A stretch of DNA of 64,000 nt from an uncultured bacterium (GTDB taxonomy: Bacteria > Elusimicrobiota > Elusimicrobia > Elusimicrobiales > Elusimicrobiaceae). Position numbers and translations under genes: made by a program. Of this stretch, positions 31,808 through 36,525 are shown in pieces (position 1 is the stretch's first letter; each line of letters opens with the position of its first letter). The notes beneath the pieces are model-generated. The model was not told the origin of the DNA. It searched no databases and saw nothing but the letters and a program-made list of their open reading frames with translations. The stretch spans positions 1 through 64,000 of the forward strand of contig CASEVJ010000006.1 in assembly GCA_949291365.1 (NCBI GenBank), given 5' to 3'.

Positions 31808-32182
31808 ATGGATACAAAACTGATTACCGAAATTACCCAGTGGATGAAAACCACGGATTTGGCTGAATTTTGTTACGAGAAAAATCATAATTGCATAGAA
31901 ATCAAAACCCGCGAAGCTTTGCCCGAACCGGCCAAGTTCTCCTGCCATTTAACGGCGGTTACCGCGCCTGCTTTGGGCTTTTATCACGCCGCTCCAAAAG
32001 GTAAAAATTTACCGCTTTCCGAAGGCCAAAAAGTAAAAGAAGGAGACAGCTTGGGCCTGGTGGAAACGCTGTCTAAAAAACATCCCATTACCGCGCCCGT
32101 GGCCGGTACCTTGCGTATTATTTCCGCCGAAGAAGGCAAATCCGTGGAATACGGCCAGCCGCTGTTTTTCATTGAACCGTAG
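31808..32182 (+). CDS. accB: Biotin carboxyl carrier-like protein without the usual biotin lysine
   Basis: This 124-residue protein aligns with the biotin carboxyl carrier protein of acetyl-CoA carboxylase. It has an N-terminal helix MDTKLITEITQWMKTTDL, a short linker, and a biotinyl domain from TAPALGFYH through EGQKVKEGDSLGLVE to the end GQPLFFIEP. The hairpin tip that reads EAMKM in normal BCCPs reads ETLSKK (residues 86-91). In a gap-free alignment Ser89 sits at the biotinylated lysine, with lysines at the next two positions. It is therefore either biotinylated at a shifted lysine or not biotinylated. The gene starts a four-gene operon with accC, 9 bases before it. Calling it accB is by homology and place only. 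Confidence 0.8.
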   Translation: MDTKLITEITQWMKTTDLAEFCYEKNHNCIEIKTREALPEPAKFSCHLTAVTAPALGFYHAAPKGKNLPLSEGQKVKEGDSLGLVETLSKKHPITAPVAGTLRIISAEEGKSVEYGQPLFFIEP

Positions 32183-32191
32183 AGGCCTTCC

Positions 32192-33583
32192 ATGAATGCA
32201 AAAATAAAAGTTACCCCCTTTAAAAAAGTACTTATCGCCAACCGCGGCGAAATTGCTTTGCGCGTCATTCGCACGCTCAAAGAAATGAATATCAAGTCCG
32301 TGGCTGTTTACTCCGAGGCCGACCGTAACAGCTTGCATGTGCGCATGGCTGATGAAGCGGTGTGCATAGGAGCGGCTCCGTCTCCAATGAGCTATTTAAA
32401 TATTGACGCGGTGGTAACCGCCGCCAAGATGACCGGAGCGGACGCCGTGCACCCGGGTTATGGTTTTTTGTCTGAAAATGCCGATTTTGCCGAAGCCGTG
32501 ACCAAAGCCGGCATTACGTTTATCGGCCCTACGGCCCAAGCTATCAGCATGCTGGGCGTAAAGAGCACCGCGCGTGAAATCGCCGTCAAAGGCGGCGTGC
32601 CTATTACCCCGGGTTCTGACGGCGTGGTGGGAAAAGATTTTCGGGAAGTGGCCCGCAAAATCGGTTTCCCAATTATGATTAAGGCCTCTTTGGGCGGCGG
32701 CGGCAAAGGCATGCGCGCCTGCTTGGAAGAGAAAGATTTGGAGCGGATGATGAAAACCGCCCAGGCCGAAGCCAAAGCCAACTTTGGAGACGACCGCGTC
32801 TATTTTGAAAAACTTGTTTTAAACCCGCGCCATATTGAGGTGCAGGTAGCGGCCGACAATTACGGCAACGCCATCGCGTTTGCCGAGCGCGACTGCAGTA
32901 TGCAGCGCCGCCACCAGAAACTGGTGGAAGAATCCCCGTCCCCGTTTGTGGACGAGGCCACCCGCCGCAAATTGCAGGAAGCCGCCGTCAAATTAGTCAA
33001 GGCCGCCAAATACCGCGGTGTAGGCACGGTGGAATTTTTGATGGCGCAGAACAAAGAATTTTATTTTATGGAAGTCAACACGCGTTTGCAGGTGGAACAC
33101 CCGGTAACGGAAGCCGTGTGCGGCTATGACCTGGTCAAAATGCAAATCCGCATTGCCCAGGGCGAACCGCTGTGCATCGGCCAGAAAGAAGCGGCGGTAA
33201 TCCGCTGCCATGCCATTGAGCACCGCATTAACGCCGAAGACAGCGATAAAAACTTTACCCCGTGCCCGGGCACCATTGAAGAGTGGATACCTGCCGGGGG
33301 CTTGGGTGTGCGTGTGGACAGCCACATGTATACGGGATACACCATTCCCAGCTATTATGACAGCTTGATAGCCAAACTGATTTTAACGGCTCCAGACCGC
33401 GAAAAATTGCTGCAGCGCAGCCGCCGTGCCCTAGGGGAATTTAAGGTGGGGGGCGTCAAAACGACCATTCCTTTCCACCAGAAAATTGTCAATAATCCGG
33501 ATTTCGTGGCCGGCAATATGGATACGGGTCTAATTGAACGTATGCTGGAAGCGGAAAAAAAGCAAGATGAAGGCCAAAAGTAA
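32192..33583 (+). CDS. accC: Biotin carboxylase subunit
   Basis: This 463-residue ATP-grasp enzyme uses ATP and bicarbonate to carboxylate biotin. All family motifs are intact: [84 protein letters not shown] (metal and substrate site) and EHRINAED. The C-terminus shows the [10 protein letters not shown] segment. It pairs with the BCCP-like protein immediately upstream. The carboxyltransferase that would complete a carboxylase is not here but at 60433-62037. The start of the adenylyltransferase gene overlaps its last 17 bases. Confidence 0.96.
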
Positions 33584-34031
33584 AATTTTCAGCCGGCCCG
33601 CTTTAGCCAAATGGCTGGATACACAGCGCAAAGCAGGTAAAAAAATCGTTTTTACCAACGGCTGTTTTGATATTCTGCACGCCGGACACGTAAGCGTGCT
33701 GGAGTTTTCGCGCGCACAGGGAGACGTGCTGGTGGTGGGCGTGAACAGCGACGCGTCCGTGCGGCGCTTAAAAGGCCCCACCCGCCCCGTCAATAAACAA
33801 GCCGACCGCGCATTGGTGCTGGCGGCCCTGCAGGCGGTGGACGCCGTGTGCGTATTTGGGGAAGATACCCCGTACAATTTGATTAAACTCGTCCGTCCCG
33901 ACGTGCTGGTAAAAGGCGGCGATTATAAGCCCTCGGAAATCGTGGGCCGTGAATTTGCAAAAAAAGTAGCGCGTTTTGCCCTGTTAAAAGGGCGTTCCAC
34001 TACCAATATTATTAAGAAAGTACAGAAGTAA
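33567..34031 (+). CDS. HldE C-terminal-type cytidylyltransferase-fold heptose-phosphate adenylyltransferase
   Basis: This protein of 154 residues has the nucleotidyltransferase signature [19 protein letters not shown] (HxGH), then [22 protein letters not shown] and VLVKGGDY, and ends with [10 protein letters not shown]. This is the RfaE domain II/HldE C-terminal type that adenylylates heptose-1-phosphate for ADP-heptose, a lipopolysaccharide core precursor. It stands alone without the kinase half that is fused to it in Escherichia coli. A separate PfkB-like kinase at 2169-3077 is not obviously its partner. It overlaps accC and precedes the SPT-like gene by 23 bases, so it is in the carboxylase operon. 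Confidence 0.85.
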
Positions 34032-34054: not shown

Positions 34055-35245
34055 ATGTCCGATATTTTTGAAAAGTGCAAAAATTATAAAGATGCCAAAC
34101 TGGCCATGAAGCTGGGCATTTACGGCTATTTCCAGCCGATAGAATCTGCCCAGGGGCCGGAAGTCATACTGGGAGGGAAAAAATATATTATGGCCGGCTC
34201 CAATAACTATTTGGGCCTGGCTGACGACCCGGAGATGAAAAAAGCCGCCGCTGATGCCGCTTTGAAGTACGGCACCGGCTGTGCAGGTTCCCGCTTTTTA
34301 AACGGCAATACCGTTTTTCACGACCAGTTGGAGCAGCGCCTTGCACGTTTTAAACGCAAAGAAGCCGGCCTTCTCTTTTCCACCGGCTACCAGATGAATT
34401 TGGGTGTGGTGTCCTGCCTGATTAAAAAAGGTGATTACGCCATCGTGGATAAACTAGACCATGCCAGCATTTTGGACGGGGTCAAGCTCTCCGACGGGGA
34501 AATGGTGCGCTTTAAACACAATGACCCGGAAGATTTGGAGCGGGTGCTTTCTAAACTGCCGCCGGAGGCGGGCAAGCTGATTATTGTAGACGGCGTATTT
34601 AGCATGGAAGGCGATATCTGCCCGCTGCCCGACATTGTCAAAGCAGCCAAGAAATACGGCGCGCGCATTATTGTAGACGATGCCCACGCCACCGGCATTA
34701 TTGGCAAAACCGGGCGCGGAACCTGCGAATATTTTGGGCTGGAAAACGGTGAAGTGGATCTCGTAGTGGGCACCTGCTCTAAAACGTTTGCCACCGTGGG
34801 TGGCTTTGTGGTGGGGGATGCTGACATTATCCATTATATCCGCCACAATGCGCGCAGCCAGATTTTCTCCGCCGCGCTGCCGCCGGCCTCTGTGGCTTCC
34901 ATTAATAAGGCGCTGGAGCTGATTGAAAATGACACCTCCCGCCGCGACAATTTGTTCCGCATGACCGATAACCTTAAAAAAGGCCTGCGCGATCTGGGCT
35001 TTGACTTGGGCCACAGCACCACGCCGGTTATCCCGGTGCATGTGGGCAGCAATGAAAACTGCTTTAAGATGTGGCGCGCCCTGCATGAGCTGGGCATTTT
35101 CTCCAACCCGGTTGTCAGCCCCGCTGTGCCCCCGGGCCGCGCTTTAATGCGCCTGACGCTGATGGCTACGCATACCGATGAACATGTACAAAAAATCATT
35201 GACGCGTTTGCCCAAGCGGGCCGGGCCGTAGGTGTGATTAAATAA
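34055..35245 (+). CDS. Serine palmitoyltransferase-like alpha-oxoamine synthase
   Basis: This 396-residue PLP enzyme condenses an amino acid with an acyl thioester, losing CO2. It belongs to the fold shared by SPT, BioF and Kbl. Features closest to bacterial SPT are SNNYLGL, FSTGYQMNLG, KLDHASILDG (stacking His136), VDDAHATG and the PLP lysine Lys243 in GTCSKTFATVGGFVVG. SPT of Sphingomonas, recalled from memory, has GTFSKSxGTVGGFVV and ends QAAGRAVGVIG, matching the end here QAGRAVGVIK. The first step of sphingolipid synthesis (serine plus acyl-CoA or acyl-ACP to 3-ketosphinganine) is therefore the favoured function. BioF is an alternative, but no biotin genes are near. A strong ribosome site precedes it and a terminator follows. 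Confidence 0.8.
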   Translation: MSDIFEKCKNYKDAKLAMKLGIYGYFQPIESAQGPEVILGGKKYIMAGSNNYLGLADDPEMKKAAADAALKYGTGCAGSRFLNGNTVFHDQLEQRLARFKRKEAGLLFSTGYQMNLGVVSCLIKKGDYAIVDKLDHASILDGVKLSDGEMVRFKHNDPEDLERVLSKLPPEAGKLIIVDGVFSMEGDICPLPDIVKAAKKYGARIIVDDAHATGIIGKTGRGTCEYFGLENGEVDLVVGTCSKTFATVGGFVVGDADIIHYIRHNARSQIFSAALPPASVASINKALELIENDTSRRDNLFRMTDNLKKGLRDLGFDLGHSTTPVIPVHVGSNENCFKMWRALHELGIFSNPVVSPAVPPGRALMRLTLMATHTDEHVQKIIDAFAQAGRAVGVIK

Positions 35246-35253
35246 GAGTTTTC

Positions 35254-35285
35254 AAACCCCGCACTCGCAAGAGGCGGGGTTTTGG
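35254..35285 (+). terminator. Terminator after the SPT-like gene
   Basis: ACCCCGC and GCGGGGT arms pair around an extended loop (ACTCGCAAGAG), followed by TTTTG. It closes the accB-accC-adenylyltransferase-SPT operon. Confidence 0.85.
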
Positions 35286-35375
35286 TATATCCGGGGGAAG
35301 CGGCTGTAAAACGTCAGATAAGCGGAAAGCATATTTAGGCCTCTGCCTGCCGCCGGGCCGCTTTAGCCAAAAGAG

Positions 35376-35395
35376 CCACGGGCCGGAGCCCGTGG
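35376..35395 (+). promoter_or_regulatory. Hairpin in the leader of the GNAT-like gene
   Basis: CCACGGGC and GCCCGTGG pair around CGGA just ahead of a weak ribosome site (GGAGCGAG) and the ATG at 35416. It is too close to the start codon to be an ordinary terminator of the previous operon. It could limit initiation or act as a weak attenuator. Confidence 0.45.
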
Positions 35396-35415
35396 TCGTT
35401 TATTTCGGAGCGAGT

Positions 35416-36525
35416 ATGGCACAGATAGAAATCAAAGACGCAGAAAACCAACTCAAAACATTTGTCCAATTTCCGTTTGATTTATATAAAAAAGACCCCT
35501 ATTGGGTGGGGGAATTGAAGGCCGATACGCTAAAACTATTGCACCCTAAAAATACATTTTGGACACACGCGCGGCGCAAACTGCTTTTGGCCTACAAAGA
35601 CGGCGCCGTGGCCGGGCGTTTGTGCGTGCTGGTCAATGATACCTATAACCAGTACCATAAAGAAAATATCGGGTTCTTTGGTTTTTTTGATTGTATAGAT
35701 GATGTGTCCGTTCCCCGCGCGCTCTTTGCCGAAGGGGAAAGCTGGCTGCGCGCCCAGGGGGTGGAGGCGGTGCGCGGGCCGGCCAACCCTTCGTCCAATC
35801 ATGTATACGGCTTGCTGGTGGACAGCTTTGACCAAATGCCGGCTATCATGATGCCTTACAATTATCCTTATTATATGAAGCTGATAGAAGCGTGCGGCTT
35901 TGGCAAAGTGAAAGATTTGCTGGCGTTTAAACGCACGCGCAACGATAAATTCTCCCCGTTGTTTGAAAAAATAGTGGCCCGCGCTGCCCGCGGCAAAGGG
36001 CTGACGCTGCGGCGGCTGGATTTGAAAAATTTAAAACAGGAAGCCGCCATTATCCGCAAAATTTATAATGAGGCCTGGGCGGAAAACTGGGGCCACACGC
36101 CGCTTTCGGAAGAAGAAATGCAGGATATGGTGCAGGAACTGAAATGGGTAGTGCGTCCCGAAGGCACCTGCGTGGCGGAAGTGGACGGCGTGCCGGCCGG
36201 GTTTTATATTGCTATTCCCAATATGAACCACGTGCTTAAAATTCTGCGCGGCGGGCTGTTTAATCCGTGGCGCACGCTCAAAGCGCTGTTGGCTTGGCCC
36301 AAAATACGCGACGCGCGGCTGATTATGCTGGGCGTGGAGCCGGGCTTTCGCAAGCGTGGTATAGATTTGGTGCTTATTAAGCACATTGTGGAATACGGCG
36401 TGGCTGTTTGGGACGAGGCGGAGCTGTCTTGGATTTTGGAGGATAATGAAGGCATTATCCGCGCCATGACCGAAGCCGGCTGTTACCAAACCAAACGCTA
36501 CCGGCTGTATCAGAAGCCGCTTTGA
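35416..36525 (+). CDS. GNAT-like acyltransferase, candidate bacterial ceramide synthase
   Basis: This 369-residue protein belongs to a conserved GNAT-like family of about 370-380 residues. Recognisable segments are GFFGFFDCIDDV, then VRGPANPSSNHVYGLLVDSF, then MMPYNYPYYMKLIEACGFGKVKDLLAF, and a second GNAT-like half with TCVAEVDGVPAGFYIAIPNMN and LGVEPGFRKRGIDLVLIKHIVE. From memory, the ceramide synthase found in Caulobacter and its relatives is a GNAT-like protein of this size encoded near SPT. The position directly after the SPT-like gene supports a role in N-acylating a sphingoid base. That role is inference; any acyl transfer to an amine or hydroxyl is possible. The ATG at 35416 is preferred over GTG at 35392. 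Confidence 0.6.
   Translation: MAQIEIKDAENQLKTFVQFPFDLYKKDPYWVGELKADTLKLLHPKNTFWTHARRKLLLAYKDGAVAGRLCVLVNDTYNQYHKENIGFFGFFDCIDDVSVPRALFAEGESWLRAQGVEAVRGPANPSSNHVYGLLVDSFDQMPAIMMPYNYPYYMKLIEACGFGKVKDLLAFKRTRNDKFSPLFEKIVARAARGKGLTLRRLDLKNLKQEAAIIRKIYNEAWAENWGHTPLSEEEMQDMVQELKWVVRPEGTCVAEVDGVPAGFYIAIPNMNHVLKILRGGLFNPWRTLKALLAWPKIRDARLIMLGVEPGFRKRGIDLVLIKHIVEYGVAVWDEAELSWILEDNEGIIRAMTEAGCYQTKRYRLYQKPL

What the first reader, a model, noticed from the sequence alone, without database searches (positions are those of the whole stretch)
34055..36525. Candidate sphingolipid genes: SPT-like enzyme beside a GNAT-like acyltransferase
Seen: an alpha-oxoamine synthase with SPT-type GTCSKTFATVGGFVVG and a C-terminus matching Sphingomonas SPT, followed by a 369-residue GNAT-like protein. 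Known: bacterial ceramide synthesis uses SPT, a GNAT-like ceramide synthase and a reductase, often clustered. Inference: this organism may make sphingolipids, with the reductase outside the window.
Basis: partly seen in the sequence, partly recalled or inferred. Interest (0 to 1): 0.62.

Follow-up and report, generated by a model that had tools for sequence, protein, structure and literature searches.

The report
Ceramide-synthesis gene pair in Elusimicrobiota
This gut-type bacterium carries two neighbouring genes, and a third elsewhere in its genome, that together look like the known bacterial recipe for ceramide-type membrane lipids, and the set is kept across most of its little-studied phylum.

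Summary
Window 34055-35245 encodes a serine-palmitoyltransferase (SPT)-type alpha-oxoamine synthase. Window 35416-36525 encodes a tandem-GNAT protein of the YghO/bCerS (bacterial ceramide synthase) family. In two trees the synthase falls on the SPT side, away from BioF and Kbl. It has the SPT-type alanine where cysteate acyltransferases have a diagnostic lysine. The genome has a separate Kbl beside a zinc alcohol dehydrogenase, and no bioB over cut-off. Closest named relatives are Elusimicrobiales.

The pair is adjacent in 121 of 127 phylum genomes holding the synthase, including assemblies of 0.5-0.8 Mb. The missing reductase has a good candidate on another contig (C5:25482-26438): in SPT-bearing genomes outside the two Elusimicrobiales-type families, its best match lies within 2.5 kb of the SPT gene in 53 of the 67 with a match. 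In other families of the phylum, reductase-SPT-GNAT is a contiguous cassette. In Elusimicrobiales-type loci the pair instead sits behind accB-accC-rfaE2.

Its 'Sphingomonas-like C-terminus' is wrong; that region resembles Sphingobacterium SPT. This is a known pathway in a phylum for which I found no report. Substrate and product lipid are untested.

The parts
34055..35245 (+). SPT-type alpha-oxoamine synthase, 396 aa: PLP lysine K243, H136, H211, N50, R366, and A273 (SPT-type alanine)
35416..36525 (+). Tandem-GNAT N-acyltransferase of the YghO/bCerS family, 369 aa (open frame from a GTG at 35392), candidate ceramide synthase
35246..35415 (+). 170-nt spacer between the two genes with two terminator-like hairpins (35264-35278 and 35375-35396)
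   Evidence: consensus match only, function not shown
33567..34031 (+). rfaE2/hldE2-like heptose-1-phosphate adenylyltransferase (TIGR02199 191.2 bits, cut-off 181.5), directly upstream; same order in all 21 Elusimicrobiales-type loci examined
   Evidence: the ORF list starts it at a TTG at 33534, an ATG lies at 33567
32192..33583 (+). accC, acetyl-CoA carboxylase biotin carboxylase (TIGR00514 652.5 bits, cut-off 626.5)
31808..32182 (+). accB-like biotin carboxyl carrier protein (Biotin_lipoyl; under the TIGR00531 cut-off)

Best explanation
The two genes encode the first two steps of bacterial ceramide backbone synthesis in an Elusimicrobiales bacterium. The PLP enzyme most likely condenses an amino acid (serine first choice, alanine possible) with a fatty acyl thioester, losing CO2, to give a 3-keto long-chain base. 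The tandem-GNAT protein most likely N-acylates that base with a second fatty acyl group. A reductase encoded elsewhere (G000:C5:25482-26438) most likely reduces the 3-keto group, giving a (dihydro)ceramide-type lipid for the envelope. Shown here: sequence family, phylogeny, active-site residues, conserved adjacency, co-occurrence with the reductase, and a predicted tandem-GNAT fold. Inferred: the reactions, their order, the amino acid used, the acyl donor (CoA or ACP), any head group and the membrane location.
For: SPT identity: best NCBIfam is NF047600 (506 bits, against 392 for BioF and 364 for a Kbl model); on the SPT side of both trees; Ala273 at the position that is Lys281 in cysteate acyltransferase SulA (PMC9304779), Thr in 3 of 3 BioF rows, Ser/Asn in 3 of 3 Kbl rows, Ala in 86 of 87 SPT-side rows. 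Not a housekeeping enzyme: the only other alpha-oxoamine synthase found in the genome passes a glycine C-acetyltransferase model (486.8, cut-off 460) and sits beside a zinc alcohol dehydrogenase; bioB is not over cut-off. GNAT: relative of YghO; of 80 relatives from named contigs, 62 have an SPT-like gene, 41 a reductase-like gene and 40 both within the fetched flank. Pairing in the phylum: 121 of 127. Reductase: candidate in the CerR side of an SDR tree (98/97), best match beside SPT in 53 of 67 genomes outside f1/f2, present in 122 of 127 genomes with SPT against 7 of 22 without (Fisher p 1.4e-11, not corrected for kinship). Fold: tandem GNAT, pLDDT 92.8, best Z 23.7, N-myristoyltransferases at Z about 15.5-15.9.
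Against: The synthase misses the curated cut-offs of all three NCBIfam SPT models; Rubrobacter and Aureispira synthases lying in SPT-GNAT-reductase loci miss them too. No specialised acyl carrier protein or acyl-ACP synthetase was seen beside the pair, as is usual in Rhodobacteria (PMC9386255). In this genome the reductase is unlinked to the pair. Terminator-like hairpins lie between the two genes. Ala at position 273 is not exclusive: two unassigned synthases outside the SPT clade also have it. The CerR tree had only four outgroup rows. No lipid data.
Confidence: 0.87

Rival explanations
1. The synthase uses an amino acid other than serine (alanine, glycine or another), so that the lipid is a 1-deoxy or otherwise unusual N-acylated long-chain base, made by the same three-step logic.
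For: PMC11334938 reports many 1-deoxyceramides in anoxic waters and notes that Spt can use alanine. The Elusimicrobiales synthases form their own clade, apart from all characterised SPTs, and miss the SPT cut-offs.
Against: Catalytic residues are the SPT set and the closest solved relatives are serine enzymes. No sequence rule known to me separates alanine from serine use.
Confidence: 0.2
2. The pair makes a sulfonolipid (capnine type): cysteate condensation followed by N-acylation.
For: Cysteate acyltransferases are relatives with the same fold (28eh and 7u7h, E about 1e-74).
Against: Lys281, stated in PMC9304779 to distinguish the cysteate enzyme, is alanine here (A273). SPT chains match far better than cysteate enzymes (1e-124 against 1e-74).
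Confidence: 0.03
3. The synthase is a BioF or Kbl (biotin or threonine metabolism) and the GNAT neighbour is unrelated.
For: Same superfamily; BioF-type models score well but below cut-off.
Against: Both trees, a separate Kbl in the genome, no bioB over cut-off, and pairing with GNAT in 121 of 127 genomes.
Confidence: 0.02
4. The reductase candidate on contig C5 is another extended SDR, and the 3-keto group is reduced by an unrelated enzyme or not at all.
For: It is only about 31% identical to the cassette reductases and lies away from the pair; few outgroups in the tree; NCBIfam gives only below-threshold matches, best HpnA, as for the cassette reductases.
Against: In 53 of 67 genomes outside f1/f2 its best match is the SDR next to SPT; it tracks SPT presence (122 of 127 against 7 of 22).
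Confidence: 0.15

Closest known systems
Caulobacter crescentus ceramide pathway (Spt, bCerS/CC_1154, CerR; PMC11087976, PMC9386255)
   Same: Three enzyme families present; GNAT of the YghO family, which PMC9386255 lists with CC_1154
   Different: No specialised ACP or acyl-ACP synthetase beside the pair; reductase on another contig; CC_1154 itself was not compared directly
Bacteroidota-type SPT (NCBIfam NF047600; Sphingobacterium multivorum 3a2b; Parabacteroides)
   Same: Best model and best solved structure; same active-site residues including Ala at the SulA-Lys281 position
   Different: Below the curated cut-off (506.5 against 640); separate clade; tandem partner GNAT and accBC-rfaE2 upstream, not seen beside the one Bacteroidota SPT locus read with flanks (L090, Parabacteroides)
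Reductase-SPT-GNAT cassettes of other Elusimicrobiota families and of Rubrobacter, Streptomyces and Aureispira (L072-L083, L085, L086, L091)
   Same: Same three families, contiguous
   Different: Gene order varies (reductase first in Elusimicrobiota, last in Rubrobacter and Streptomyces, divergent in Aureispira); in Elusimicrobiales the reductase lies elsewhere
Escherichia coli yghO locus (L092)
   Same: AOS, GNAT (YghO, about 35% identical to the window protein), SDR
   Different: Carries its own ACP and fatty acyl-AMP ligase; its SPT is of the Rhodobacteria type

Membership tests
Bacterial SPT clade (alpha-oxoamine synthases) | Groups with known SPTs and apart from BioF and Kbl | tested here: met
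   61-row clade 100/97 holding Sphingobacterium, Parabacteroides, Sphingomonas and Aureispira SPTs; SPT side 100/99 in a 43-row tree without the longest rows
Bacterial SPT clade (alpha-oxoamine synthases) | PLP lysine and catalytic/carboxylate residues; alanine at the position of SulA Lys281 | tested here: met
   K243, H136, H211, N50, R366 and A273 in the alignment (residue roles from PMC9304779)
Bacterial SPT clade (alpha-oxoamine synthases) | Condenses L-serine with an acyl thioester | not testable with these tools
   needs an enzyme assay
NCBIfam NF047600 (narrow Bacteroidota SPT equivalog) | Score over the curated cut-off of 640 bits | tested here: not met
   506.5 bits; so it is not filed in this narrow family
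YghO/bCerS tandem-GNAT family | Sequence relationship to a published member | tested here: met
   35.3% identity and E 2e-58 to YghO of an E. coli plasmid over 99% of the query; yghO of E. coli BL21 listed with CC_1154 in PMC9386255
YghO/bCerS tandem-GNAT family | Direct relation to the verified Caulobacter CC_1154 | not tested
   CC_1154 was not fetched; linked only through YghO and the paper
YghO/bCerS tandem-GNAT family | Genetic linkage to SPT and reductase | tested here: met
   62 of 80 relatives with SPT-like, 41 of 80 with reductase-like in the flank; SPT-GNAT adjacent in 121 of 127 in the phylum; in this genome itself the reductase is unlinked
YghO/bCerS tandem-GNAT family | N-acylates a long-chain base | not testable with these tools
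   needs an assay or complementation
CerR-type reductase (candidate G000:C5:25482-26438, outside the window) | Extended SDR with TGxxGFxG and YxxxK | tested here: met
   TGGKGFIG at the N-terminus and YGITK at 139; Pfam Epimerase E 8e-36
CerR-type reductase (candidate G000:C5:25482-26438, outside the window) | Groups with SPT-linked reductases, apart from other SDRs | tested here: met
   98/97 split, but only 4 outgroup rows; best match beside SPT in 53 of 67 genomes
CerR-type reductase (candidate G000:C5:25482-26438, outside the window) | Periplasmic location, as shown for Caulobacter CerR (PMC11087976) | not testable with these tools
   no obvious hydrophobic N-terminal segment, not decisive
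BioF (8-amino-7-oxononanoate synthase) | Groups with BioF; biotin genes present | tested here: not met
   Trees; bioB best 99.4 bits, cut-off 225, in a genome about 93% complete
Kbl (glycine C-acetyltransferase) | Groups with Kbl, beside tdh | tested here: not met
   Trees; the genome's Kbl is at C7:134820-135932 beside a zinc alcohol dehydrogenase
Cysteate acyltransferase (SulA/CFAT) | Lysine at SulA position 281 | tested here: not met
   alanine, A273

The most novel reading that the evidence does not exclude
A ceramide-type lipid is a conserved, near-indispensable envelope component of most Elusimicrobiota. It stands alongside lipid A rather than replacing it, and is retained even in reduced 0.5-0.8 Mb assemblies that probably belong to intracellular Endomicrobia-like symbionts. 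In Elusimicrobiales its synthesis is tied to fatty-acid and heptose (LPS) supply through an accB-accC-rfaE2-SPT-bCerS operon. The product could be a new sphingolipid class, since these synthases form their own clade.
Probability: 0.35. Interest if true: 0.62.

Novelty: new member of a known kind. Interest (0 to 1): 0.42.

Why it matters
Sphingolipids were long thought rare in bacteria. A metagenome study lists 38 Black Sea phyla with Spt-like genes (PMC11334938), but its main text does not name Elusimicrobiota (supplements not seen), and my searches found no paper on sphingolipids of this phylum. The data here give a near phylum-wide gene set with all three steps, a reductase candidate that lies apart from the pair, retention in small genomes and decay in a few. 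That makes a clear prediction, lipids of Elusimicrobium minutum and of gut relatives, and adds a possible source of bacterial sphingolipids in animal guts.

Tried and rejected
Rejected: BioF, Kbl and cysteate acyltransferase identities (see membership tests). Rejected: that the pathway replaces lipid A as in Sphingomonas, because lpxC is present in this genome (C7:110762-111577) and matched in 145 of 149 phylum genomes (142 over cut-off). Tried with little gain: sequence search of the GNAT protein against solved structures gave no match with the single sequence and only weak C-terminal GNAT matches with a profile; fold search gave a tandem-GNAT fold but no substrate hint. The NCBIfam scan of the reductase gave only below-threshold matches. 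Paper searches for Elusimicrobiota or Endomicrobia with sphingolipids listed only unrelated works (judged from titles and abstract starts). One of them, PMC7203096, was opened for passages: in the part held, it names sphingolipids for the Bacteroidetes/Flavobacterium group and Chlorobiales only.

Rows dropped before trees: rows of 26 locus prefixes, near-duplicates and others chosen by hand, were dropped from the 96-row synthase set, leaving 70 rows; 43 rows were used in the second tree, without four long rows. For the reductase tree 15 locus prefixes were dropped, and three spurious antisense ORFs were removed after the first run. The SPT list used for pairing was cut by me at E 2.2e-118 or better, one per genome (127 of 149).
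Full report
OBSERVATION. The window is contig C6 of a 1.39 Mb, 12-contig genome about 93% complete. At 34055-35245 (+) there is an intact 396-aa alpha-oxoamine synthase and at 35416-36525 (+) a 369-aa GNAT-like protein. The first enzyme's best NCBIfam model is a serine palmitoyltransferase (NF047600, 506.5 bits, under its cut-off of 640); BioF and Kbl models score 392 and 364 or less. Its best solved relatives are Sphingobacterium-type SPT chains (E 1.5e-124). The C-terminal stretch resembles Sphingobacterium SPT, not Sphingomonas.

WHICH ORGANISM. One scan of named genome contigs with the GNAT family gave as closest relatives uncultured Elusimicrobiales (L145: GNAT 84%, synthase 93% identical) and other Elusimicrobiota. 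The window is therefore from phylum Elusimicrobiota, order Elusimicrobiales by nearest named relatives. Family codes such as f1 and f10 below are the tool's; that f10 is Endomicrobia-like is my inference from genome sizes.

IDENTITY OF THE SYNTHASE. A 70-row maximum-likelihood tree separates three Kbl and three BioF rows from the rest at 99/98. It puts the window enzyme in a 61-row clade (100/97) with SPTs of Sphingobacterium (3a2b), Parabacteroides, Sphingomonas, Roseomonas and Aureispira. A 43-row tree without the longest rows repeats the split at 100/99. In the alignment the window enzyme has K243 (PLP lysine), H136, H211, N50 and R366, and alanine at 273. That last position is Lys281 in the cysteate enzyme SulA and alanine in SPT (PMC9304779, passages read). 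In my alignment it is Ala in 86 of 87 SPT-side rows, Thr in 3 of 3 BioF and Ser/Asn in 3 of 3 Kbl. Two unassigned synthases outside the clade also have Ala, so the residue is a filter rather than proof. The genome's only other alpha-oxoamine synthase found (C7:134820-135932) passes a glycine C-acetyltransferase cut-off (486.8 against 460) and lies beside a zinc alcohol dehydrogenase, as expected for Kbl-Tdh. bioB is not over cut-off (best 99.4 bits against 225).

IDENTITY OF THE GNAT PROTEIN. Against plasmids the window protein matches YghO of E. coli (about 35%, E 2e-58) and GNAT proteins in annotated loci that also hold SPT-like and reductase-like genes: Rubrobacter, Aureispira, Streptomyces, Sphingomonas and Roseomonas. 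PMC9386255 (passages read) lists E. coli BL21 yghO (ECD_02850) with Caulobacter CC_1154 as the N-acyltransferase of dihydroceramide synthesis. I did not fetch CC_1154 itself. Of 80 relatives from named contigs, spanning more than 20 phyla, 62 have an SPT-like gene (over 200 bits), 41 a reductase-like gene (over 90 bits) and 40 both, within the fetched flank. Several flanks are cut by contig ends, so these are lower bounds. AlphaFold2 with 41 sequences gives mean pLDDT 92.8. The fold is a tandem GNAT (best Z 23.7, rmsd 3.5, 301 aligned, MAB_4324), with N-myristoyltransferases at Z about 15.5-15.9. The fold is consistent with an acyltransferase but does not show the substrate.

CONSERVATION IN THE PHYLUM. 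In 149 genomes drawn from the phylum, 129 have the GNAT protein at E 1e-5 or better and 127 have an SPT-clade synthase by my cut of E 2.2e-118. In 121 of those 127 the GNAT gene follows directly on the same strand, gap 5-397 nt, median 82. This includes assemblies of 0.5-0.8 Mb (for example G131, G097, G105, G113). Six of 127 lack the adjacency; in several of these a contig end lies close by. All 14 genomes of seven other families of the same class (f3-f9) lack the GNAT protein, and none has an SPT-clade hit. In three f10 genomes the pathway is decayed or incomplete: G017 has reductase and GNAT but no detectable SPT between them, G001 has SPT fragments only, and G123 has all three genes broken.

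GENE ORDER. In the 21 Elusimicrobiales-type loci examined, accC, rfaE2 and the SPT gene keep the order seen in the window, accB lies upstream as well (in many of them further away), and the GNAT gene follows in 20 of 21 (the exception is L141). None of 19 other Elusimicrobiota loci examined has accB, accC or rfaE2 nearby. In families f10, f15, f16 and f18-f22 the order is reductase-SPT-GNAT. In the window a 170-nt spacer with terminator-like hairpins separates the genes; the scan found 10 such sites in the region against 4.8 in shuffles, so this is weak.

THE REDUCTASE. No reductase-like gene was detected in the window. With the cassette reductase of G037 as query, this genome's best match is C5:25485-26426 (31%, E 2.7e-38), against E 5e-11 for the next SDR. 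The full gene is C5:25482-26438, 318 aa, with TGGKGFIG and YGITK. Within about 6.5 kb upstream of it lie TonB-like, PgpA, CDP-alcohol phosphatidyltransferase, LolA-like and FtsK genes. In a 48-row SDR tree it falls with SPT-linked reductases, apart from three other SDRs of this genome and E. coli RfaD, at 98/97; only four outgroup rows were used. As a query it finds the SPT-adjacent gene as best match in 53 of the 67 SPT-bearing genomes outside f1/f2 that match at all; 3 more do not match. It is found (E 1e-20) in 122 of 127 genomes with SPT and 7 of 22 without (counts by hand; Fisher p 1.4e-11, which ignores kinship).

MECHANISM. Most likely: amino acid plus acyl thioester gives a 3-keto base by the PLP enzyme; N-acylation by the tandem-GNAT enzyme; keto reduction by the C5 gene product. 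The order N-acylation before reduction follows the Caulobacter work (PMC11087976, part 1 of 4 of the text read), where SPT and bCerS are cytoplasmic and CerR periplasmic; PMC9386255 describes the other order as well. Steps shown here are sequence family, conserved linkage, co-occurrence and predicted fold. The reactions, amino acid, acyl donor, head group and location are inferred. The genome also has lpxC (C7:110762-111577), so lipid A is probably made too.

KNOWN OR NEW. The pathway is known. PMC11334938 (passages read) reports Spt-like proteins in 38 phyla of the Black Sea; its main text has no occurrence of 'elusimicrob', and its supplements were not open to me. Searches for Elusimicrobia or Elusimicrobiota with sphingolipid, elusimicrob with SPT or ceramide, and Endomicrobi with sphingolipid listed no paper on the matter. 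PMC11257099 on Endomicrobia genomes has no occurrence of sphingo or ceramide in its main text. I therefore rate it a new member of a known kind, with a variant gene order and an unlinked reductase.

Noticed in passing
L238 (G017), L239 (G001), L240 (G123): In three genomes of group f10/g24 the reductase-SPT-GNAT cassette is incomplete or broken: SPT missing between intact-looking neighbours, SPT in fragments, or all three genes broken. This looks like recent loss of the pathway.
   Followed up: partly
genomes of families f3-f9 (14 genomes): These members of the same class lack the SPT-clade synthase and the GNAT protein altogether (0 of 14), so the pathway was lost or never present in part of the class.
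   Followed up: no
L089:5998-7212 (Priestia megaterium plasmid): A Gram-positive plasmid carries an SPT-clade synthase 48.5% identical to the window enzyme, with no GNAT or reductase partner annotated nearby, but beside a methyltransferase gene and an acyltransferase-family gene.
   Followed up: no
L071:6631-7764, L075:1231-2355, G030:C2:43109-44185: Some Elusimicrobiota carry a second GNAT paralogue of the same family away from SPT; its role is unknown.
   Followed up: no
31808-34031: accB, accC and an rfaE2-like heptose adenylyltransferase sit directly upstream of the pair, with the same accC-rfaE2-SPT order in all 21 Elusimicrobiales-type loci examined: a possible envelope-lipid operon.
   Followed up: partly
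35264-35278 and 35375-35396: Two terminator-like hairpins between the SPT and GNAT genes may separate or attenuate their transcription.
   Followed up: no
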